From Polaribacter sp. IC066 (GTDB lineage Bacteria > Bacteroidota > Bacteroidia > Flavobacteriales > Flavobacteriaceae), in assembly GCF_007997085.1 (NCBI RefSeq), contig NZ_VORR01000010.1:1-64000 (forward strand): a stretch of 64,000 bases of DNA. Direction: 5' to 3'. Below are positions 13,591 to 23,735 of the stretch, one piece after another. The notes under the pieces were generated by a model, which saw only the letters and a list, made by a program, of their open reading frames with translations, was not told where the DNA came from and did no database searches. A program made the translations under genes and the position numbers. How positions within the stretch are numbered: the first letter of the stretch is position 1; the number at the start of each line of letters is the position of its first letter.

Positions 13591-16500
13591 CTATTTCTCT
13601 AATCCTTTTTTCAAAACTTCTTGAATTCCTTCTAAATGCTCACTAAACTGCATCATTTGCGCTAACACTTGCGTCATTTCATTAGCATTCCCAAAACCTT
13701 TTAATTTGTTGTTTTTCACAAATGTGGTTTTGATTGTTTCCCAGCGTAATTTTTCATCCACAGATAATAGATTCCCTAATTCTTTGTATTTTAAAAGATT
13801 AGACTCTGCTGCACTTGTTAAGGTTTGAGATTCGTTTTCATAATGAGACAATAACAAAATTTCTAACTCTTTATTATTCATAATTGGTACCACTTTAGCA
13901 ACCAGTTTATTCATATCTCTATAAGAGCCTTGCAATTTAAAATTAGGTTCAGTTCTGTTCTGGTCGTCCATGGCAGCAGATTTTATATATGCCGCATTTA
14001 CCTCCATCACTCGATCTCTAACAATCATTACTTTCTCTAAAACAGACAAATAATCATTTAATTCTTGTTTTGTGTAATTTCCTTTTAACTCAATGCCTTC
14101 TCTATTTCCTGTTTCAACAATTTTCACAAATTGATAAATATCATCAAAATTTGTGCTGGAAACTTGGCTCAAAATCGGATTTGAAGTCAACGAATTTTCG
14201 ATTAAGCTCATCTTAAACAACGATGCTGTATCCCCAATAATATCTCCCAAATTATAAATATCTGCTCTATTGGCAAGCATATCCGGAATTTGAAACTTGT
14301 CGCCGCTTTCTGTATACGGGTTTCCAGCCATAATTACACAGAACTTTTTATCTCTAAAATCATAGGTTTTTGGTTGCCCATTATAAACACCTTCAATTTT
14401 ACGTGTTCCGTCTGCCAAAGAAATAAATTTCTGTAAAAACGCTGGATTACAATGCTGAATGTCATCTAAATACAACATTACATTATTGCCCATTTCAAAC
14501 GCTAAATTCAGTTTTTTTAATTCTTCACGCGCTGCAATATTTGTCGCAGACATTGGGTCTACAGAAGTAACTTCATGACCAATTGCAGGACCATTTATCT
14601 TCATAAAAACAAAACCCAATCTGTTTGCCAAATATTCCATTAAAGTGGTTTTACCATACCCTGGAGGCGAAACCAACAACAACATTCCCATTCTATCAGT
14701 ACGTTTATTGCTACCTACACTTCCTAATTGTTTCGATAAATTATCGCCAAACAAAGGCAAATACACTTGATCTATTAATTGGTTTCTTACAAAAGACGTT
14801 AAAACTCTTGGTAAAAATTCTTCTAACTTTAACCCTTCTTTTAGTGCTTCTGTAACATTGTGCTTTTCCTTTTTATATTGATGAAATCCGGAAATTTCAA
14901 CCGCTGAAAAATGTGCTAATTGCGCTACAAATTGATGATAATCGAAAATAAATTCTTGGCTTTTTATCGAAGAATGACTTCCTAATAAATCTTTGATAAT
15001 TTCTTCTGCTTCAACATTCACTATATTTTGCGCAGATTTATCTTCATATAAAAACAAACAAACAATTTCGTAAATATAAGCTGCATCTTTTTCATGTGAT
15101 GATTTTACAAAAGAGGACACCCATTCGGTTGCTAAATTAATTTTATAGGCTTCATTATTAAGCAACTGAATTTCAGTTCTTAAATTATGAACGTTCTTGT
15201 TATCATTTAAAACTTTTAGAAACTCGTCAAATAAAGTAATTGCTTTCTGACTTACATAAAAACTTGTTTCATCACTTAATTCTTGAAATAAATAATTTGC
15301 AATTTCGAACTGATTTTCTTCTTGATACTCCTTACTATTTACTAAAACCTTGGCAAAAATAGTATGTATAGATTTCCCTAAATCTGTAATCAGCTGTAAA
15401 TGACTATCACTTTTTGGAAACACCTTTAAAACGGCTGCAGATGCTTTTATTTTATCACCATAAAAAGTTCTTTTTTCTTCGGATAAACAATGCCAAAATA
15501 ACTGTGAAAATGCTCTAATTTTTGGAGAGAACCTCAACAAACCGAGTGAAGTTTCTTTGATTATAAAAGTTTTTAAAATTTTAAATGCATCTACATCATG
15601 AACTCCTTTTGTGTAGCCTTCTGTATAACTTTTTGAAGCAACAGTTTTCACTAAATCCAACAATTTTTCATCGGTTCGATTGTATAAATCTTCGATAGTA
15701 TTTTCTTGTGTAATTCGATACGCTAAATAAGCTGCGCGATAGACGTTTTCATTTTCGGAAACAAAAGATTGATTCCAATATTTCTCTGATTTTAATAGAA
15801 CCTCATTTTCAATTTCTTGGTAAAAATCTGTTCCAGTTAAATGATAAGAAAGGGATTTGTCTTTATACACAATCGTTAAGTCTAACACTTGCTTGTTTAC
15901 CCCAAATTTATGTTTCCCTAGCCTAATTACATTTTCGCCATCTTCATATAAATCTTGTTTGTCTTTTAGTTTTCTAACAGCATCTTCTTTGGCTGTTTTT
16001 AAACCCGTTTCAATCATTTCTGCTTTTCCACCATCTTCTAAATCATATAATTGAGTAATGATGTCTCGCAGTTTATTAATCATTAAATCGGATGCGAAAT
16101 ACCCATTAATTTCATTTAAAAATTTAAAACTTTCTGCTTTTTTAACAACGCCATTTAAAATTCTTTTTGCCGCTGTTTCTAAAGAAATTGCTTTCCTATT
16201 TCTGGCTTCAATAATGCTACTTTTCTTTGCCTGAAAGGCATTATAGACTTCTTCTCTTTTTTCTAAAATATCTGCAATAAATTCGTCATAATCTGCAAAT
16301 CTACCTTCTAAATCTTCTAACTGAATCGCTACTTTATTTAGCAATTCGTCTGTTTTTTCTGGCGTTGTGGCAATGTCTAAATAATTGACAATACTTTGAT
16401 CAATCAGTTTTATTTTAGAAGAAAAATCTGCGCTTGCTTCTTCTGAACTTAACGATTTAACTTTATTCTTAATTCCTGCTTTTAGTTGATTAATCGTAGA

Positions 16501-18468
16501 AAAAATCAACGAAATAGAATCGATAATTTTTGTAGAATGAGAAGTATCTTCAATCTCTAAATTAGACACAATTTCTATCAGCAATTCTAAATCTGTAACA
16601 ATTTGATTGACTTCTTTTTCTACTGCTTTTGCATTGATTACTTTACTGATTTTATCTAATTCCGTTTCTTTTTCTGCTACTCTTTTATGATACGGTAGCA
16701 ATGCTTTTTCATCCAACAGAAAAGAAACACATCTTTGTGAAATTGTTTCTGTTTGTGCGACAAGTTCGGCTTCTAATTTTACTAAATAAGCTACATCTAT
16801 ATATCTTATTTCTTTAAAACCAATAATTTCTCCTCGTAAGGTTCTTAATTGTGACAATGCTTGCACAAAATCATCAATAGATTTGAACGAAGTACTTTTT
16901 ATTTTACTAAAAAAAACGTTTGCTTTTCCAGCAATTTCTTCCGTTATCTTTTTGGCATTTTTTCGAAGTTGTACCACCTTATCAAACTCGTCAATAGCTG
17001 CATTTGCTGAAGCGTTTATGGCTGCTAACGGAATGGATAATTCAAAGGTTTTTGATTCTTTTATCCAGTAATAGCTATCAGAAATATCCAAGGAAATTTT
17101 AGCAATGTCTTCATACAACCCGTCATAATTATCTTCTTTATTTAAAAGTGTGATTAAAACTTGGCATTCTGCCATCGCCTTCACAATATCTTTATTGCCA
17201 ACTTTGTATAAAAAAGAGTCTTTAAATTCTGATGGAATTTCGGTGCCTTGCGTAAATGGTGTTTGCCAAATCTGAATTACATGATGCCTTGTTTGATCTT
17301 CATTATCTTTAAAATAGCACAATTCGCCATTTTTTAAGAAGGTAAATCCGCTACAAATAATTGGCGTTTTTACCTCTTGCTCAATCACATTATAAGACAT
17401 CAATACATACAATCCTGTTGTTTCTTGATAAAAGACATAGAAAAAATCTTCTCCGTTTTGTGAGCTTATTTTATCTTGAAACTTTAAATCTGTGAACTGA
17501 TTATCAAAAATTTTAAAACCACCCGATTGTAAATAATATCCGTTTGAAAAAATAATTCCTTGGTCGTTTGGCAATAAAACAGCCGCATCTTTTATCGCAT
17601 CTATCTTCTTAACCTCTTGTATTTTATGATTGTACACAAAATAACGCGTTGCTTCTTGAAATGGTTTTATTTCTAAAATGATTAGATTTCCTAAATCGGC
17701 AAAACGGTATTGACCATCATCTAATGTTTGATCTGCTTGCGTAACCGACTCATTATAAATACCTTTTCCGTCATCGGTATTATTTTCGATTTTTATGGTT
17801 AAATCACCGCCAACAGTTTCCACAAAAACCTTATCTAAAATACTAATATGCGGATGTTTGCCATAAAAATGCATGTCTCTCGTAACTTCTTGCCACCTAT
17901 ATTCATGCTGATTTGGAAATACAAACTCGTGATCACTCCTGTTATCAACATAACTTAAAGTTCCGTCGGTTATTAACCATTTAAAAGTTTTGATATCGCT
18001 AGCGGTTTCACTTAATTGAAAAACCAAATGCAAGTAATTACCAATAATGGCAAATTTGCTAAAAATGGTGTTTCTGTAATATTTATAAAGATTCGTGAAA
18101 TCTAACGTAAAAGCATCATTTTCTAGAAAATCTAAACCTTTGTTCACAAATTGCGTTCCGTCATAAGAGAAAATGCTGAAAACATCGTTTAACTTTACAT
18201 CTGTTCTTAATCCTAAATGAACATTATATCCAAAAATACTGATATTGCCAATCGTTATAATATCTCGAGCAATACAGTTGTTTTCTGTGTTAATTCTATT
18301 GTTTGCAATTAGTTTAGTTTCTACACTACCAAATACTTTTGCACGTTCTTGGTTTAATTGACCAAGCCGGGTTTGCAGTGCTTCTTTTTGCTTTTGAAGA
18401 CGATTTTGAATAATTTCATACGTTCCGTCTTCGAGAATATTCTTTTGATTTTTTTCTTCTTTTTGCAT
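13591..18468 (-). CDS. Giant AAA-type ATPase (annotated elsewhere as DNA repair ATPase)
   Basis: A 1625-residue cytoplasmic protein without a signal peptide. The first 50 residues are a short coiled coil; about 50-430 is beta-rich with repeated WD-like or propeller-like strands; about 430-860 is dominated by long helices and coiled coil; the AAA domain is at about 1240-1420, with Walker A SPPGYGKTT near 1266 and Walker B VMLYLDDIQH near 1331, then an Arg-containing MAGNPYTESGDKFQIPDMLANR region. Proteins like this are labelled DNA repair ATPase in databases, but the neighbours (flotillin, NfeD-like, PspA) point to membrane or envelope stress work. It lies 158 bases after the flotillin gene, with inverted repeats between. 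Exact role unknown. Confidence 0.85.
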   Translation of the reverse strand: MQKEEKNQKNILEDGTYEIIQNRLQKQKEALQTRLGQLNQERAKVFGSVETKLIANNRINTENNCIARDIITIGNISIFGYNVHLGLRTDVKLNDVFSIFSYDGTQFVNKGLDFLENDAFTLDFTNLYKYYRNTIFSKFAIIGNYLHLVFQLSETASDIKTFKWLITDGTLSYVDNRSDHEFVFPNQHEYRWQEVTRDMHFYGKHPHISILDKVFVETVGGDLTIKIENNTDDGKGIYNESVTQADQTLDDGQYRFADLGNLIILEIKPFQEATRYFVYNHKIQEVKKIDAIKDAAVLLPNDQGIIFSNGYYLQSGGFKIFDNQFTDLKFQDKISSQNGEDFFYVFYQETTGLYVLMSYNVIEQEVKTPIICSGFTFLKNGELCYFKDNEDQTRHHVIQIWQTPFTQGTEIPSEFKDSFLYKVGNKDIVKAMAECQVLITLLNKEDNYDGLYEDIAKISLDISDSYYWIKESKTFELSIPLAAINASANAAIDEFDKVVQLRKNAKKITEEIAGKANVFFSKIKSTSFKSIDDFVQALSQLRTLRGEIIGFKEIRYIDVAYLVKLEAELVAQTETISQRCVSFLLDEKALLPYHKRVAEKETELDKISKVINAKAVEKEVNQIVTDLELLIEIVSNLEIEDTSHSTKIIDSISLIFSTINQLKAGIKNKVKSLSSEEASADFSSKIKLIDQSIVNYLDIATTPEKTDELLNKVAIQLEDLEGRFADYDEFIADILEKREEVYNAFQAKKSSIIEARNRKAISLETAAKRILNGVVKKAESFKFLNEINGYFASDLMINKLRDIITQLYDLEDGGKAEMIETGLKTAKEDAVRKLKDKQDLYEDGENVIRLGKHKFGVNKQVLDLTIVYKDKSLSYHLTGTDFYQEIENEVLLKSEKYWNQSFVSENENVYRAAYLAYRITQENTIEDLYNRTDEKLLDLVKTVASKSYTEGYTKGVHDVDAFKILKTFIIKETSLGLLRFSPKIRAFSQLFWHCLSEEKRTFYGDKIKASAAVLKVFPKSDSHLQLITDLGKSIHTIFAKVLVNSKEYQEENQFEIANYLFQELSDETSFYVSQKAITLFDEFLKVLNDNKNVHNLRTEIQLLNNEAYKINLATEWVSSFVKSSHEKDAAYIYEIVCLFLYEDKSAQNIVNVEAEEIIKDLLGSHSSIKSQEFIFDYHQFVAQLAHFSAVEISGFHQYKKEKHNVTEALKEGLKLEEFLPRVLTSFVRNQLIDQVYLPLFGDNLSKQLGSVGSNKRTDRMGMLLLVSPPGYGKTTLMEYLANRLGFVFMKINGPAIGHEVTSVDPMSATNIAAREELKKLNLAFEMGNNVMLYLDDIQHCNPAFLQKFISLADGTRKIEGVYNGQPKTYDFRDKKFCVIMAGNPYTESGDKFQIPDMLANRADIYNLGDIIGDTASLFKMSLIENSLTSNPILSQVSSTNFDDIYQFVKIVETGNREGIELKGNYTKQELNDYLSVLEKVMIVRDRVMEVNAAYIKSAAMDDQNRTEPNFKLQGSYRDMNKLVAKVVPIMNNKELEILLLSHYENESQTLTSAAESNLLKYKELGNLLSVDEKLRWETIKTTFVKNNKLKGFGNANEMTQVLAQMMQFSEHLEGIQEVLKKGLEK

Positions 18469-18515
18469 TCGGATTATAGATAGATTTTACTGTAGAAATT
18501 AATAATCTGTAGTTC

Positions 18516-18610
18516 TATCCTGCAAGGTTTTAATACCTTGTAGGTATGTTTAATTCGAAATAGTTTTTAATCTTATCCCTACAAGGTCAAGAAAAAGACC
18601 TTGCAGGATA
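18516..18610. repeat. Pair of facing palindromic repeats (REP-like)
   Basis: Arm 1 (18516-18544) and arm 2 (18577-18610) are inverted copies built on TATCCTGCAAGGT and ACCTTGTAGG; each arm is itself partly palindromic. It sits between the flotillin stop and the ATPase start and could form a large cruciform or RNA hairpin, splitting or tuning expression within the operon. The core AGACCTTGCAGG resembles the palindrome at 25109-25141. Confidence 0.7.
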
Positions 18611-18626
18611 TAAAATGTAATTAATT

Positions 18627-20696
18627 CTACCCCAACTTCTTATCAGACAATCCTAAACCTTTTGCAAGATTCATTAAATTCGAAAACAAGTTGCTTTCTT
18701 CATTATCAGAAGTTTTCGATTTTAAATCCATCAAAATACTCGCTACAGAAAGATTTTTTAAATCTTCTGATGATACATTGTATTTATCAGCAAAATCTCT
18801 CACTTTTTCTAGTAAATTTCCTTTAACATCATTGCTGCCAAGAATTGCATTTTTTACCTCTTGAATATTATCAGAATGTTTTGTCAATCTGTCAATACCT
18901 TTTGCTCTTGTAATTTGCCCAACAATCTGATCAAAGAACATGGTTTCTCCGCCAACAATATCAATATTCGCGGCTTTCAAGGCCTCTCCGATTACACTTG
19001 CTTGCGCATCTGCTATTTCTTTCTGAATATTAATTTCAGCCAAGTCAACTTGTAATTCTTTGTTTAAACGCAATTTAAATTCTTCATGCTCTTTACCAAC
19101 ACCATCTAATTTCTTCATGGCATTTGCTTTTTCTTCAATTCCGGCTGCATCTGCCAAAGCTTTTTCTTTGATTACGATTGCTTCTGCCATTCCTTGTTTC
19201 TGAATCGCTGTTGCTTTTGCTTCAATACCAGCCGCTTCTGCTTTCGCTTTTTTCTCAATAATTAAGGCTTCTACAATACCTTCACGCTCATGCGCATCTG
19301 CTTTTGCATGCATTACTTGCGCTTCAGACATTCCGATTACAGCTTCTTCTTTCGCTGTTGCTTCCGCTAAAATTTTTCTTGATTCCGCTTCTTTTTCACT
19401 GGCTTGTTTCTTCGCTAACGCTTCAATATTAATTTCTTCTGCTTGCTGAATTGCTGCTTGCTTTTGTGCTTCTGCAGCTTTCGTCGTTTTAATTAGCTCT
19501 TCTTCTGCATTTCCCTCTGCAATCGTAATTTTAACTTGCTTTTCTCTATCCGCAGTTTTAAAAGCCTGAATATCTTTCATATTCTCTTGCTCTTGTACCA
19601 CTCCTTTTTCTAAAACAACACGATCACGAATTACATCTTGAATATTCTTCTTCTCAACTTCTAATACTCTTTCTTTTTCTATCTGCGCTAAAGTTACAAT
19701 TCGCTCTCTTTCAGTTGCTTCTAACATTCTGTCTTTTTCGACTCTCTCTGTTTCTACAACACTTGTTCTTTCTTTATTTTTAGCAGCGACAATTACTTGA
19801 CGTTGCATATTTTCTTCGGCAACTTGCAATTTTTCTTCTGTAGCGATTCTTGCACTTTCAGATTTTAAGCGCTCTTCTTCATTTACTTTTAAAATACTTG
19901 CTTCTTCGCGAGATTTAATATTGGCAATTTCTCTTTTCTGCGATTCTTCTTTTTCTGCTAATTGCTTGTCTAATTCTAAAATTGCCTCACGCGCTTCAAC
20001 GTCTTGTTTTCTGATGGTTTTTTGTTCATCACGCATAATTAAATTCGACTTCACGTTTTGTGCCGCCGTTAATTCGGTGATTTTTTTAATCCCCTCTGAA
20101 TCTAAAATATTGTCTGTCTTTAAAAACGAAACTGGCGTTTGTTCTAAATAATCAATTGCACAATCTTCTAGCGTATATCCGTTTAAATCCGTGCCGATAA
20201 TATCAACAATTTCATCTCTAAATTCTCTACGCGCCTCGTATAATTCTATGAACTCAAACTTTTTTCCGACTGTTTTTAAGGCTTCAGAAAATTTTGCTTC
20301 AAATAAATCTTCTAATGTTTCAATATCGGATGCTCTTGCACAACCAATAGTTTGTGCTACTTTTTTAATATAATCGATTTCATTATTTACACGAACAAAA
20401 AACGCCACTTTAATATCTGCACGCATGTTGTCTTTACAAATAAGACCTTCATTACCAAGTCTTTCTATTTGAATTTTCTTTACAGAAATATCCATAATTT
20501 CTACTCGATGAAAAACAGGCACCACATACATTCCTTTATCTGTGGCAACTTTAGTACCACCCATACCTGTTCTTACCAGCGCTTGCCCTTGTGGTATTTT
20601 CTTATAGAACATGGCAACAATAGCAACAACAAGAATAAGTAGGAAAATAAATACTCCTAAAAAGATTCCAATAAGTGGTGATAAATTTTCTAGCAT
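18627..20696 (-). CDS. Flotillin/YqiK-type SPFH protein
   Basis: A 689-residue membrane-anchored scaffold. Seen: one N-terminal transmembrane helix (9-31), a YKKIPQGQALVRTGMGGTKV segment entering an SPFH/Band-7 domain (about 33-220), then a very long coiled coil (about 210-560) with repeated Ala-Glu-rich units (KAEAAGIEAKA and similar), and a helical C-terminus. This is the architecture of E. coli YqiK (553 residues) but longer. Flotillins organise membrane microdomains. The NfeD/YqiJ-like partner starts 12 bases upstream on the transcript, matching the common flotillin-NfeD pairing. Confidence 0.9.
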   Translation of the reverse strand: MLENLSPLIGIFLGVFIFLLILVVAIVAMFYKKIPQGQALVRTGMGGTKVATDKGMYVVPVFHRVEIMDISVKKIQIERLGNEGLICKDNMRADIKVAFFVRVNNEIDYIKKVAQTIGCARASDIETLEDLFEAKFSEALKTVGKKFEFIELYEARREFRDEIVDIIGTDLNGYTLEDCAIDYLEQTPVSFLKTDNILDSEGIKKITELTAAQNVKSNLIMRDEQKTIRKQDVEAREAILELDKQLAEKEESQKREIANIKSREEASILKVNEEERLKSESARIATEEKLQVAEENMQRQVIVAAKNKERTSVVETERVEKDRMLEATERERIVTLAQIEKERVLEVEKKNIQDVIRDRVVLEKGVVQEQENMKDIQAFKTADREKQVKITIAEGNAEEELIKTTKAAEAQKQAAIQQAEEINIEALAKKQASEKEAESRKILAEATAKEEAVIGMSEAQVMHAKADAHEREGIVEALIIEKKAKAEAAGIEAKATAIQKQGMAEAIVIKEKALADAAGIEEKANAMKKLDGVGKEHEEFKLRLNKELQVDLAEINIQKEIADAQASVIGEALKAANIDIVGGETMFFDQIVGQITRAKGIDRLTKHSDNIQEVKNAILGSNDVKGNLLEKVRDFADKYNVSSEDLKNLSVASILMDLKSKTSDNEESNLFSNLMNLAKGLGLSDKKLG

Positions 20697-20708
20697 AATT
20701 TTAAATGT

Positions 20709-21422
20709 TTAGTTCGTTTTATAGGATTGTACGTAATAATAATTTTTGTCTGCACTCTGTTTAATGATTAAAATAGACTCTCTAAAATTAATTAGTTCGC
20801 CGTTTAAAGATTTTACATATATGGATAAAGGTGTTTCTTCTACCACAATTTCTGCAGAACCCATTTTATTCTCTTTTATAGTAGATAAACAAATTCCTAC
20901 TCTTCCAATAATATCGATGGGTACATCGCCATCTTTATTAAAATTTTTAAAGAATTTCTTAAACGGAATTGTAAATATTTTGTTGATAATTAAGGACGGA
21001 AATATGGCCAATAACATAATTAAAACCCCAAAAGAAGTATCATAACTATAAGTAATTGTTGTGATGGTGGTTGTTAGCATCCACCAAATAAAAATCCAGC
21101 AAGTGAAAGCAAACATAAAGGGCAAACCGACAAAATTAAAGTATACAAGTACAACTTGCCACCATTTTAAGGGGCTTCTTCTGTTGCCTATTATATGTTC
21201 TTTTTCAATTTGTGCGTTAGAGACATCTTGAAAATCAATATTTCCACCTTCTATATTCGCATCAAAGTCCGCATCAATATCAAAATCGACGTCAATATCA
21301 AAATCTACATCAAAATCTACTCCAGAAATCATTGTGACTAACCAATACAAAATGAGTATCAGCATCAAAATAGTTAGTGTAATGTTCACTGGAGAGAATA
21401 ATATGTCTATAAGTGAATTCAA
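20709..21422 (-). CDS. NfeD/YqiJ-like OB-fold membrane protein
   Basis: A 237-residue protein. It has an N-terminal helix (residues 8-30), then an acidic dipeptide tract (about 34-57) of alternating Asp with Phe, Val or Ile, two central transmembrane segments (about 90-115 and 125-150) and a beta-rich C-terminal OB-like domain (about 160-237: GRVGICLSTIKENKMGSAEIVVEE and following). It corresponds in position and layout to YqiJ, the NfeD-type partner of YqiK flotillin. The acidic tract is unusual and could bind cations or a basic partner; this is inference. It is 2 bases from pspA-like and 12 bases from flotillin. Confidence 0.75.
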   Translation of the reverse strand: MNSLIDILFSPVNITLTILMLILILYWLVTMISGVDFDVDFDIDVDFDIDADFDANIEGGNIDFQDVSNAQIEKEHIIGNRRSPLKWWQVVLVYFNFVGLPFMFAFTCWIFIWWMLTTTITTITYSYDTSFGVLIMLLAIFPSLIINKIFTIPFKKFFKNFNKDGDVPIDIIGRVGICLSTIKENKMGSAEIVVEETPLSIYVKSLNGELINFRESILIIKQSADKNYYYVQSYKTN

Positions 21423-21424
21423 TA

Positions 21425-22141
21425 TTATGATTTTATATCGTTAGAAAAACCTAACTGTTCTTTTAATTTTGTCAATTCGTTTTCGGCTGAATCAGCTGTA
21501 AAATCTATGGCTTTGTCAATTTCATCATCTATAGATTTGTTAGCGTTTGCAATATCGCCGTACGCTTCTGCTAATGCTTCTTCTTGATGTACTTTTTCTT
21601 TCATTCTTTCTAACATTGATACCGTACTTGATGCATCAATATCTGCCATTTGCTTATTCAATTTTTGCGTTGCATTAGAAACTTTTACTCGTGCTTTTAA
21701 CGTTTTTAATTCGTTTTCCCATTTACTGATATTCTTCCTAACTGCTACAACATTCTTTTCTAATTGAGATACAGAACCTTCTAATTTCGCAGATTCTGCT
21801 TTCGAGTTTTCTGCATGCACACTACTTTCCTCTTTTTTAATTAAAGATTCTTTTGCCAAACGTTCTGCTTCAGACATTTTTAACGTACCTTTTTTAGCTT
21901 TCGTTAATAACAACATCGCTTTTTCTTGGTAATTCTCTACTTTAGATAAAAACTCTTCGTACTCATTTTTAGACCTAATTGCCAAGGCTTTTACTTGTGC
22001 CAAGGCTTCTAAACTTTTTTCAAGATCTACTTTCATATCTCTTATTCCTTGCTCTGTCAATTTGATAGGATCTTCCATATTGTCTAAAGTCGAATTCGCT
22101 TCGGCTTGTCCCATTTTAAATAATCGTTTAAAAAAATTCAT
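21425..22141 (-). CDS. PspA/IM30 family protein
   Basis: A 238-residue, almost wholly helical protein of the PspA/IM30/Vipp1 family, peripheral membrane proteins that coat and protect damaged inner membrane. It starts MNFFKRLFKMGQAEANSTLDNMEDPIKLTEQGIRDM, the standard amphipathic helix and dimer hairpin; long coiled coil spans about 25-185, and a short C-terminal helix follows. Length is typical (220-240). It is preceded by the DUF2170-like gene (3-base gap) and followed by the NfeD-like gene (2-base gap), so translation is probably coupled. This set parallels enterobacterial yjfI-yjfJ and yqiJ-yqiK modules merged into one operon. Confidence 0.92.
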   Translation of the reverse strand: MNFFKRLFKMGQAEANSTLDNMEDPIKLTEQGIRDMKVDLEKSLEALAQVKALAIRSKNEYEEFLSKVENYQEKAMLLLTKAKKGTLKMSEAERLAKESLIKKEESSVHAENSKAESAKLEGSVSQLEKNVVAVRKNISKWENELKTLKARVKVSNATQKLNKQMADIDASSTVSMLERMKEKVHQEEALAEAYGDIANANKSIDDEIDKAIDFTADSAENELTKLKEQLGFSNDIKS

Positions 22142-22144
22142 AAT

Positions 22145-22540
22145 TTAATATTTTGAAAAGTTTATAATTTGTTCTGAATATTCGCTCAACAACAAGCTCA
22201 ACGAATTTAATGACGCCTCTAACTCGTTTAAATCGAGGTTTTCAATTTGCAGAGTGTCTCTAAAAATTACTTTTTGTCCGGTTTCATCAAGTACAAATGC
22301 ACCGTGAATAATATCTCTATTTTTCTGCAATAATTTTTTAAAAACCTCTTCATTTTTATTTTTGATGTTAAAAATATGTTGCTCCATAATTAACATTGGC
22401 GGCGCAATTCCTAAAATCAAATTTTTAATCCCTTCACTCTCTTTGCTAATCATTAAAATACCGTCTTCAGAATTTTCAAAAACAATATTAAAATCGAGTT
22501 GCATTAAAAAATTTTTAATTTTTGTGTTGTAGTTTTTCAT
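22145..22540 (-). CDS. DUF2170/YjfI-like small protein, first gene of the PspA operon
   Basis: A 131-residue cytoplasmic alpha/beta protein. The size, the position immediately before PspA, and blocks such as ILGIAPPMLIMEQHIFNIKN and IIHGAFVLDETGQKVIFRDTLQIENLDLNELEASLNSL (a substrate-chaperone-like fold, sometimes labelled molecular chaperone Tir) match the YjfI/DUF2170 group that accompanies PspA. The family call is moderately sure, made from pattern and context. It probably works with PspA. It opens the five-gene operon facing the XRE regulator. Confidence 0.65.
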   Translation of the reverse strand: MKNYNTKIKNFLMQLDFNIVFENSEDGILMISKESEGIKNLILGIAPPMLIMEQHIFNIKNKNEEVFKKLLQKNRDIIHGAFVLDETGQKVIFRDTLQIENLDLNELEASLNSLSLLLSEYSEQIINFSKY

Positions 22541-22695
22541 AGTTAGTTATTTGTTGTTTGTTCTTTTTCTTTAAAAACACAATTACCCAATATTACAACA
22601 AGTTAGACAAAATCGCTACAAGTTTTAAAACAAAAATAAAAAGGCAATACACAAGTAAGATCATATTTTAAAAGTTTAAGTTGGTTGATAAAATG

Positions 22696-22789
22696 CTAAT
22701 TCTGTTAGTTTTTATTCCTATTTTGATAAAACAGCAACAAAAAGCTAGTTAGATTAGCACAATTAAAAATAATTAACTAATATTGTTAG
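22696..22789. promoter_or_regulatory. Candidate operator cluster between XRE gene and PspA operon
   Basis: Two direct copies of CTAAT-N2-TGTTAG (22696-22708 and 22777-22789) agree at 11 of 13 bases and are themselves imperfect palindromes. A third related site, GCTAGTTAGATTAGC (22744-22758), is read in the opposite sense. The gene-free gap is 297 bases between divergent genes; the cluster is nearer the regulator gene (ATG 22838), so autoregulation is plausible. Confidence 0.55.
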
Positions 22790-22837
22790 CGTAAAGATAC
22801 ACTTAAATTTAAATAATGCAAATTAAATTAGCAAAAT

Positions 22838-23596
22838 ATGTCTTTTTTCGGAAAAAATATTAAAAAAATAAGAACAGTAAAAGGATTAAGCCAAACAGCA
22901 TTCGCTGATATTTTTGGCTTAAAGCGATCTGCATTAGGTGCTTACGAAGAACACAGAAGTGAACCAAAAATAGAAACAATTATTAAAATTGCTAATTATT
23001 TTAGCATAAAAATAGATACGTTGTTAACGAGTGATATTACTGTTAACGAGTTATTACAGTTTAAAGAAAGTTTAGCAACCTACACTGAAGATATCAAAAA
23101 AGAACCGTTTGCAAAAGTACCATGTATTACAGATAATAACAATATAGATTATCTGCAGCATTTTAAAAATGATATTTTTATTGACGAAATGCCTTGTCTT
23201 CAAATCCCTATAAATACGTCTAAAAATTTTAGAGCGTTTACCGTTTCTAGTTTAGAAATGACCAACAAAGACAAAGGTTTTTATCCGAAGGATATTGTTA
23301 TTGGCGAACAAACACCGATAAATGTCATAAAAAAACTTACAAACGGAACGTTGGTTTTTGCAATTATCGACAACAACATATTATTCAGAAGACTACATAT
23401 AACCAACAACAATGTTATTTTTAGAGCAGATCATAAAAATATAGAAGACGAAATTTATAAAATTTCTGATGTAAAAGAACTTTGGCGCGTTCGATACGTT
23501 TTCTGTAAAAGAATTCCAGAATTTTCTACTTCTTTTGAAGATAAGTTAATTACAATAGAACAAGAAATTTTAAAGATGAAAGCGAAAATGGAGTAA
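22838..23596 (+). CDS. XRE-family regulator with S24-like C-terminal domain
   Basis: A 252-residue DNA-binding protein. An HTH of the Cro/CI type is at about 8-62 (IRTVKGLSQTAFADIFGLKRSALGAYEEHRSEP). The C-terminal part (about 110-225) resembles a LexA/CI S24 fold: YPKDIVIGE and TLVFAIIDNNILFRRLHI. The usual catalytic Ser-Met and Lys are not clearly kept; the position of the Lys is occupied by Arg in FRRL, so self-cleavage is doubtful and ligand or dimer sensing is more likely. A short helix closes the protein. It is divergent from the PspA-flotillin-ATPase operon and is its most obvious candidate regulator. Confidence 0.8.
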   Translation: MSFFGKNIKKIRTVKGLSQTAFADIFGLKRSALGAYEEHRSEPKIETIIKIANYFSIKIDTLLTSDITVNELLQFKESLATYTEDIKKEPFAKVPCITDNNNIDYLQHFKNDIFIDEMPCLQIPINTSKNFRAFTVSSLEMTNKDKGFYPKDIVIGEQTPINVIKKLTNGTLVFAIIDNNILFRRLHITNNNVIFRADHKNIEDEIYKISDVKELWRVRYVFCKRIPEFSTSFEDKLITIEQEILKMKAKME

Positions 23597-23626
23597 GGGT
23601 TTTTAGCTTTTGGTTGTTAATTTTTG

Positions 23627-23654
23627 GCTTTTAGCTTTTAGCTTTTAGCTTTTA
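23627..23654. repeat. Heptamer tandem repeat (GCTTTTA)4
   Basis: Four perfect units of GCTTTTA, with imperfect relatives just upstream (23602-23626), directly after the XRE gene stop. A second, longer heptamer array with a different unit follows ctaA. Confidence 0.85.
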
Positions 23655-23735
23655 GTAATCTAAAAAATTAAGATATAACTGAACTATTTAACAAGGTTAT
23701 TTTTAGTTAAATTTTAAACTAACTCTTCACACATT

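What the first reader, a model, noticed from the sequence alone, without database searches (positions are those of the whole stretch)
13591..23596. Five-gene PspA-flotillin-giant ATPase operon with its own divergent regulator
DUF2170-like protein, PspA, NfeD/YqiJ-like, YqiK-type flotillin and a 1625-residue AAA ATPase lie in one direction with gaps of 3, 2, 12 and 158 bases, facing an XRE/S24-like regulator. PspA and flotillin-NfeD sets are known membrane-protection modules; joining both with a giant ATPase commonly labelled DNA repair suggests that the label is wrong and the ATPase remodels the flotillin or PspA scaffold. The architecture is seen; the function is inference.
Basis: partly seen in the sequence, partly recalled or inferred. 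Interest (0 to 1): 0.6.

Follow-up and report, generated by a model that had tools for sequence, protein, structure and literature searches.

The report
Membrane-protection operon with giant ATPase
A marine bacterium carries a set of five genes, apparently kept silent by a neighbouring switch gene until needed, that probably protects its inner membrane; the gene set itself has been described in print before, while the switch with its DNA binding sites, and the closer tie of the giant motor protein to a membrane-scaffold protein than to the shock protein, look like new details.

Summary
Five genes (CesT/Tir-type chaperone, PspA, YqiJ-like, YqiK-type flotillin, 1625-residue DUF3686 AAA+ ATPase) run one way with gaps of 3, 2, 12 and 158 bases, facing an XRE/S24-like regulator. 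One correction: the first gene matches CesT_Tir_1 (PF22550), not DUF2170. The arrangement is already published (Ravi et al. 2024, PMC11237479), with chaperone-like and remodelling readings.

Added here: (1) The ATPase follows the flotillin, not PspA: YqiK is the next conserved gene upstream in 50 of 50 readable loci (four phyla, mostly Flavobacteriaceae), PspA is near in 31 of 50, and ten genomes that keep YqiJ-YqiK-ATPase show no PspA (one clade, probably one loss). (2) In Bacteroidota the regulator comes and goes with chaperone and PspA. (3) The divergent gap holds a conserved operator array around a Bacteroidota-type promoter of the operon (about 22 of 30 loci; no such site before the operon in ten regulator-less loci), so the regulator probably represses it.

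Best reading: a repressor-controlled envelope-stress module whose AAA+ serves the flotillin scaffold. ATPase function is inference; DNA repair has no support beyond its label and weak RuvB matches.

The parts
13591..18468 (-). Giant AAA+ ATPase: DUF3686 31-467 (mostly beta in the model), DUF7902 588-671 and long helices, AAA+ module about 1226-1560
   Evidence: Walker A PPGYGKT, Walker B ending DD, N1383, R1401 and R1517 invariant in 53 aligned homologues
18627..20696 (-). YqiK-type flotillin/SPFH protein with N-terminal hydrophobic segment and long coiled coil
   Evidence: BLASTP to E. coli YqiK E 1e-44; of 16 aligned members only 2 match Band_7 and 1 matches Flot in Pfam
20709..21422 (-). 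YqiJ/NfeD-like membrane protein
   Evidence: placed by position and alignment, no significant pairwise match to E. coli YqiJ
21425..22141 (-). PspA/IM30 homologue; the only PF04012 match in the genome
   Evidence: E 3.9e-41; single genome match
22145..22540 (-). CesT/Tir-type chaperone (PF22550), first gene of the operon
   Evidence: E 3.5e-57
22838..23596 (+). Divergent XRE-type regulator with S24-like C-terminal part that lacks the LexA catalytic pair
22818..22832 (-). Operator-like site 1 GCTAATTTAATTTGC (1 mismatch), overlaps the TTTG box
22776..22790 (-). Operator-like site 2 GCTAACAATATTAGT (exact), just after the TATCTTTA box
22744..22758 (-). Operator-like site 3 GCTAATCTAACTAGC (1 mismatch)
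22695..22709 (-). Operator-like site 4 ACTAACAGAATTAGC (exact); less conserved than sites 1-3
22792..22822 (-). Promoter-like TTTG-N19-TATCTTTA reading towards the operon (Bacteroidota consensus recalled)
   Evidence: within 30 nt of the regulator start in 23 of 30 loci, spacer 19; mononucleotide shuffles mean 0.1 loci

Best explanation
A repressor-controlled envelope-stress module. Shown: gene order and its recurrence; constant pairing of the ATPase with a YqiK-type flotillin in the loci read; the XRE-CesT-PspA block as a separable unit; a conserved operator-like array over a conserved promoter-like element; conserved ATPase motifs. Inferred: the regulator binds the array and keeps the operon off, its S24-like part acting as a non-proteolytic sensor; envelope stress opens the operon. 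YqiK (SPFH) with the YqiJ/NfeD-like partner forms an oligomeric scaffold on the inner membrane; the giant ATPase docks on it through its N-terminal beta-rich and coiled-coil part, and its AAA+ ring remodels or extracts scaffold-bound clients. PspA, partnered by the CesT/Tir chaperone, is an added membrane-repair arm that the core can do without.
For: YqiK is the next conserved gene upstream of the ATPase in 50 of 50 readable loci in four phyla; PspA near in 31 of 50. Ten genomes with YqiJ-YqiK-ATPase: 0 PspA, 0 CesT_Tir_1 (6 of 6 PspA-plus genomes score there). Divergent XRE in 21 of 21 and 7 of 7 Bacteroidota loci with CesT-PspA-ATPase plus the window and Hymenobacter, and not found at 11 of 11 strong CesT-PspA dyads without ATPase. 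Operator-like cores: 25 exact in 7,932 bp of divergent gaps against 4 in the other roughly 730 kb of the same loci; 9-mer CAATATTAG in 21 of 30 gaps, dinucleotide shuffles mean 0.3; two of three genome-wide matches lie in this gap; none in the 600 bp before YqiJ in ten regulator-less loci. Pseudomonas relative: bacA-F co-transcribed, BacB-F raised 6-13-fold in a bacA mutant (PMC10948618, passages); PA3728-PA3732 among 17 genes raised in all phage-infected samples (PMC12041424, one passage); PA3731 overproduced under hyperosmotic stress (PMC2587700, passages); BacA-BacB contact predicted (PMC13092808, passages).
Against: No interaction with the flotillin was tested. The 50 loci are not independent: most are Flavobacteriaceae, and the ten PspA-less ones are one clade, so one event; completeness of those ten genomes was not told. 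A Pseudomonas mutant lacking the flotillin of this operon (paFlo3) has about 20% less biofilm and no oxidative-stress defect, and its authors see no E. coli orthologue of it (PMC13086221, passages). Foldseek's top AAA+ rows mix Lon, NorQ, Vps4 and CbbQ, so the fold does not single out a client. The Walker B ends DD rather than the usual DE (usual form recalled). N-terminal model poor (pLDDT 59.5, pTM 0.32). Repression rather than activation rests on site positions only, and no promoter-like element of this kind reads towards the regulator (0 of 30). That PA3728 is a DUF3686 protein was not tested.
Confidence: 0.6

Rival explanations
1. Vps4-like: the AAA+ ATPase mainly disassembles or remodels PspA (ESCRT-III-like) polymers, and the flotillin only anchors it.
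For: Ravi et al. compare PspA-AAA+ pairs with Snf7-VPS4; full operons carry both; Vps4 is among Foldseek's top rows for the AAA+ model (ranks 6, 8, 11; E 5e-5 to 8e-5).
Against: Ten genomes have the ATPase and no PspA match; 11 of 11 strong CesT-PspA dyads fetched without ATPase stand alone; in the Streptomyces, Nonomuraea, Deinococcus, Vibrio, Photobacterium, Halomonas and Proteus loci fetched no PspA lies in the stretch.
Confidence: 0.15
2. DNA-repair ATPase, as the Pfam and RefSeq labels say.
For: PF12458 description; sub-threshold RuvB_N match around the Walker A (22.4 bits, cut-off 27); RuvB rows.
Against: RuvB profile hits cover about 42-44 residues and rank below p97/NVL-type ATPases; the constant partners are membrane proteins.
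Confidence: 0.04
3. Anti-phage or anti-envelope-attack module rather than general membrane maintenance.
For: Pseudomonas PA3728-PA3732 raised in all phage-infected samples; phage-repressor-like regulator (RstR-type HTH, below its cut-off); variable genes between YqiK and ATPase in relatives; patchy distribution, 8 of 296 Bacteroidota genomes.
Against: PADLOC: nothing for four of the six proteins, HTH-type matches for the regulator and one weak AAA match (E 0.0087) for the ATPase; induction by phage is also what a membrane-stress response would show.
Confidence: 0.1
4. The divergent regulator activates the operon, or controls mainly itself.
For: Site 1 overlaps the TTTG box and four sites allow dual control.
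Against: Site 2 directly follows the TATCTTTA box and site 3 lies further downstream, which fits repression; no site before the operon where the regulator is missing while YqiJ-YqiK-ATPase stay.
Confidence: 0.2

Closest known systems
CesT/Tir-PspA + band-7/flotillin + YqiJ/YuaF + AAA+ operon class (Ravi et al. 2024, PMC11237479)
   Different: XRE, S24 and LexA do not occur in its main text (figures and supplementary tables not seen). It suggests that PspA-free versions might use PspA encoded elsewhere; the ten genomes checked show none.
Pseudomonas aeruginosa bac operon bacA-F (PMC10948618, PMC2587700; passages)
   Same: Chaperone-fold first gene, PspA-type second gene, short NfeD, SPFH protein and further genes, co-transcribed.
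   Different: First gene is DUF2170/YjfI; a proposed sigma-54 site instead of a divergent XRE regulator; six genes.
Bacillus subtilis pspA-ydjFGHI (PMC8581546; title, abstract start and four passages)
   Same: An SPFH protein (YdjI) required to link PspA to the membrane (title).
   Different: The four passages and their term counts show no ATPase in the paper's text; DUF3686 is found in 0 of 14 control genomes.
E. coli yqiJK and yjfIJ
   Same: YqiK homologue; YjfJ is a PspA homologue (PMC10948618, passage).
   Different: yqiJK stands without PspA or ATPase genes beside it; no DUF3686 in 14 control genomes.
HflK/C-FtsH
   Same: An SPFH assembly paired with an AAA+ machine (abstract starts in the listing).
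   Different: No protease domain matched in the DUF3686 ATPase; a different SPFH protein.

Membership tests
CesT/Tir-PspA-flotillin-YqiJ-AAA+ operon class (Ravi 2024) | CesT/Tir-PspA dyad with YqiJ-like, TM-band7-coiled coil-flotillin and AAA+ genes | tested here: met
   the YqiJ-like gene by position and alignment only
DUF3686 ATPase family | PF12458 over the curated cut-off and an AAA+ module | tested here: met
   586.7 bits against 25; AAA_5 33.1 against 22
DNA-repair ATPase | Role in DNA repair | not testable with these tools
   Only the family label and weak RuvB matches
Beta-propeller N-terminus of the ATPase | Closed ring of four-stranded blades | tested here: inconclusive
   Strands at 67-386 and many propeller-type matches, but pLDDT 59.5, pTM 0.32 and VIA Z at most 6.3
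MoxR/dynein/midasin-type AAA+ (clade name recalled) | Nearest structural relatives in that clade | tested here: inconclusive
   VIA: CbbQ Z 14.9 (rmsd 3.7, 211 aligned), NorQ 14.8 (4.0, 227), dynein 14.2 (5.4, 218), Rea1 12.7 (4.5, 235); ClpA 13.3 and ClpC 13.2 are in the same range
YqiK/flotillin (SPFH) | SPFH/Band_7 domain and Flot region | tested here: inconclusive
   BLASTP to E. coli YqiK E 1e-44 starting at residue 11; no Pfam match for the window protein
YqiJ/NfeD | TM segments plus OB-fold domain | tested here: inconclusive
   Alignment shares P101 in all 15 rows and a conserved Gly region; NfeD matched in 2 of 15 members, best E 0.0024; no pairwise match to E. coli YqiJ
DUF2170 (YjfI/BacA) | Match to the DUF2170 model | tested here: not met
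   Not listed at E up to 0.1; PF22550 matches instead; no BLASTP match to a YjfI protein. Ravi et al. place both in one CesT/Tir superfamily
Classical Psp system | PspA with PspF/PspB/PspC | tested here: not met
   PspA present; no PspB, PspC or PspF model among the matches of the six proteins
LexA/S24 autoproteolytic repressor | Ser-Lys catalytic pair | tested here: not met
   LexA Lys156 falls on Arg in 26 of 26; Ser119 falls on Glu by hhalign (Prob 22.6, weak) and on Tyr/Arg/Phe in 23/2/1 of 26 by MAFFT, on Ser in neither

The most novel reading that the evidence does not exclude
An ATP-driven, non-proteolytic counterpart of the HflK/C-FtsH complex: a YqiK-type SPFH scaffold with a dedicated giant AAA+ remodeller is the core, found in four phyla, and the CesT-PspA arm with its phage-repressor-like, protease-dead S24 switch is a plug-in that Bacteroidota carry or drop as one block.
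Probability: 0.3. Interest if true: 0.7.

Novelty: new member of a known kind. Interest (0 to 1): 0.45.

Why it matters
It moves a family labelled 'DNA repair ATPase' to the membrane, names the flotillin as its most constant partner, and supplies a handle (regulator, operator, promoter) with which to switch the system on in the laboratory. SPFH scaffolds are common, but ATP-using partners other than FtsH-type proteases are little known (recalled); a dedicated AAA+ partner in four phyla would make flotillin mechanism directly testable.

Tried and rejected
Profiles of the ATPase against solved structures matched short stretches around Walker A or, for the N-terminal part, one designed helix bundle at E 0.18, and did not place the protein. 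YqiK had no solved relative by phmmer at E 0.001; the chaperone had one at E 0.11. The N-terminal ATPase model was too poor to call the fold; comparisons gave propeller-type proteins at low Z. MAFFT and hhalign disagree on where LexA Ser119 falls; I claim only that neither puts a Ser there. Genes between YqiK and ATPase in relatives are of mixed kinds; I scanned 10 proteins of those listed and left them out of the model. A Flot-model search in 198 Bacteroidota genomes (28 with a match) misses the window's own YqiK, so it was not used for counts. Of 21 weak PF22550 places (of 40) only two were fetched (L093 with a PspA next to it, L094 without). PMC8926400 lists PA3729 in two pull-downs at about 1.3-fold, not enriched. 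PMC9239133 was seen in three passages only. Papers not named with passages above were seen as listings.

Rows dropped before counts: L008, L019 and L033 (contig ends) from 34 to 31 loci; H3 (Proteus, like H2) from 12 to 11 plasmid-collection records; L096 and the record of L105 were not searched for PspA (size limits); 4 of 30 regulators (240 aa or shorter) were left out of the LexA comparison; 21 of 34 loci less L027-like near copies were used for the two structure alignments (20 loci plus the window).
Full report
OBSERVATION. The ORF list gives all six genes at the stated places; gaps computed from it are 3, 2, 12 and 158 bases. Pfam: ATPase DUF3686 (31-467, E 3.2e-176), DUF7902 (588-671, E 4e-24), AAA_5/AAA (from 1263); PspA_IM30 E 3.9e-41; regulator HTH_3 plus a sub-threshold S24 match. 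The first gene is CesT_Tir_1 (PF22550, E 3.5e-57), not DUF2170. The YqiK protein has no Pfam or NCBIfam match but aligns with E. coli YqiK from residue 11 on (E 1e-44). The YqiJ-like protein is placed by position and alignment only. PspA is the only PF04012 match in the genome.

PRIOR WORK. Ravi et al. 2024 (PMC11237479; section 19 read in full; [quoted passage not shown] They propose chaperone-like assembly of membrane complexes and, for PspA-AAA+ pairs in general, ATP-dependent membrane remodelling. In Pseudomonas aeruginosa the related bac operon is co-transcribed and BacB-F rise 6-13-fold in a bacA mutant (PMC10948618, passages); PA3731 is overproduced under hyperosmotic stress (PMC2587700, passages); PA3728-PA3732 are among 17 genes raised in all phage-infected samples (PMC12041424, one passage); PA3728 is listed as an ATPase (PMC8190622, passage). 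I did not test that PA3728 is a DUF3686 protein. Against a strong role: the mutant of the flotillin paFlo3 has about 20% less biofilm and no oxidative-stress defect (PMC13086221, passages). Searches that found no paper on this ATPase with its partners: DUF3686 (0 papers); PspA + flotillin + YqiK + AAA ATPase (0); at least two of DNA repair ATPase, flotillin, PspA (116 papers, 20 listed, none of these 20 holding 'DNA repair ATPase').

THE ATPASE FOLLOWS THE FLOTILLIN. 34 related loci were found in named genomes; 31 have enough upstream DNA. In 31 of 31 the next conserved operon gene upstream of the ATPase is YqiK, with YqiJ before it; mechanical ORFs of 70 aa or more lie between YqiK and ATPase in 25 of 31, gap 124-2456 bp. 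21 of 31 also have CesT, PspA and the divergent XRE; 10 of 31 have none of the three. In the Bacteroidota sample 8 of 296 genomes have DUF3686 and all 8 also have CesT_Tir_1 (39 of 296 have it); the 7 other than the window's were fetched and 7 of 7 have XRE, CesT, PspA, YqiJ, YqiK and ATPase together. In the plasmid collection 12 records match; of 11 fetched, 11 have YqiK directly upstream, 8 a YqiJ-like gene by profile, 2 a PspA in the stretch. Window included: YqiK 50 of 50, PspA 31 of 50, in four phyla (Bacteroidota, Pseudomonadota, Actinomycetota, Deinococcota). The ten PspA-less Flavobacteriaceae genomes show 0 PspA (completeness not told) and 0 CesT_Tir_1 (where 6 of 6 PspA-plus genomes score). 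Ravi's suggestion that such operons might use PspA encoded elsewhere is not borne out in them. In the ATPase tree these ten form one clade inside the full-operon loci (SH-aLRT 100, quick method, no bootstrap), so this is one event, not ten. Of 9 plasmid-collection records searched for PspA, 2 have it beside the ATPase, 3 far away on the same replicon, 4 not at all (replicons, not genomes).

THE BLOCK XRE-CEST-PSPA. Where CesT-PspA accompanies the ATPase in Bacteroidota the divergent XRE is there: 21 of 21, 7 of 7, the window and Hymenobacter. Of 19 strong PF22550 places, 8 are the ATPase genomes; at the other 11, PspA is next to it in 11 of 11 and no XRE of this family, YqiK or ATPase was found in the stretch fetched (6.5-19 kb). 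The switch thus goes with the combined system.

OPERATOR AND PROMOTER. In the 297-bp gap four sites of the form NCTAAYNNNRTTAGN lie at 22818-22832, 22776-22790, 22744-22758 and 22695-22709 (two exact, two with one mismatch). Over 30 divergent gaps, sites with at most one mismatch start at core positions 6-8 (22 loci), 48-50 (22) and 80-82 (20) from the regulator start; exact cores number 25 in 7,932 bp of gaps against 4 in the rest of about 730 kb; mononucleotide shuffles gave a mean of 0.085, at most 1. In dinucleotide shuffles the 9-mer CAATATTAG, present in 21 of 30 gaps, has a mean of 0.3. The loci are related, so these ratios overstate independence. L075, L078, L079, L081 and L095 have no site, L080 one stray one-mismatch site, L077 site 1 only; L009 has the array at shifted coordinates because its start was set differently. 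Sites 1-2 and 2-3 are 42 and 32 bp apart, near 4 and 3 helical turns (10.5 bp per turn, recalled). In the window's genome RCTAAYANNATTAGY has 3 matches, 2 of them here; the reversed control has 5 in all, so specificity rests on the clustering. A promoter-like TTTG-N19-TAnnTTTR (Bacteroidota consensus recalled) overlaps site 1 and ends just before site 2, reading to the operon, in 23 of 30 loci (26 of 30 anywhere in the gap); shuffles mean 0.1; no such element reads towards the regulator in 30 gaps. In the ten XRE-less loci no exact core lies in the 600 bp before YqiJ, nor in the 400 bp before CesT at the 11 dyads. The simplest reading is repression of the operon by the regulator (inference). 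Its S24-like part keeps no LexA-type catalytic pair (weak alignment), so release by self-cleavage is unlikely and a ligand or protein signal more likely (inference).

ATPASE ANATOMY. Across 53 aligned homologues 181 residues are invariant, including Walker A, a DD Walker B, N1383, R1401 and R1517 (the roles sensor-1, finger and sensor-2 are assigned from recall). A model of residues 860-1625 (mean pLDDT 71.8, pTM 0.46) gives an AAA+ core; Foldseek's top rows mix Lon, NorQ, Vps4, ClpA and CbbQ, and VIA-align ranks CbbQ and NorQ (Z 14-15), dynein (to 14.2), ClpA/ClpC (13) and Rea1 (12.7) close together: protein-remodelling AAA+ types, clade unresolved. The model of residues 1-700 (pLDDT 59.5, pTM 0.32) is beta-rich at 67-386, then helical, in line with the published propeller and coiled-coil description but not proving it.

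MECHANISM AND VERDICT. Best reading: a repressor-controlled envelope-stress module whose constant core is an SPFH scaffold with its NfeD-like partner and a dedicated AAA+ remodeller, to which Bacteroidota attach a chaperone-PspA arm. DNA repair has no support beyond the label and weak RuvB matches. The system is a new member of a published operon class; the flotillin-over-PspA linkage in genomes without detectable PspA, and the regulator with its operator-promoter anatomy, are the additions.

Noticed in passing
window 18519-18607: Two REP-like hairpins CCTGCAAGGT...ACCTTGTAGG in the gap between flotillin and ATPase; 10 exact copies in the genome, 0 for the reversed control.
   Followed up: partly
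L003:4792-5106, L013:8911-9915, L014:8494-9857, L025:8461-9990: Relatives carry variable extra genes inside the operon: YbjQ_1 between PspA and YqiJ; a WD40 with 2OG-Fe oxygenase protein, a GNAT acetyltransferase or a protein with weak TPR matches between YqiK and ATPase.
   Followed up: partly
L005, L013, L014, L018, L020, L022, L030: A second, short YqiK-like ORF (about 200 aa) lies between YqiJ and the full YqiK.
   Followed up: no
L097 (plasmid pQBR103): A YjfI-PspA-rhomboid-DUF2491-DUF350-DUF1190-glutathionylspermidine synthase cluster directly precedes a YqiJ-like-SPFH-ATPase set, as if two PspA operon classes were joined on one Pseudomonas plasmid.
   Followed up: no
window 21422: The YqiJ-like ORF starts with TTG two bases after the PspA stop; the mechanical ORF start is TTG in 4 of 4 orthologues looked at (L014, L015, L021, L027), perhaps translational coupling.
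   Followed up: partly
window 23600-23660: Short tandem repeat of the AAAAGCTAAAAGCTAAAAGCC type just downstream of the regulator (seen).
   Followed up: no
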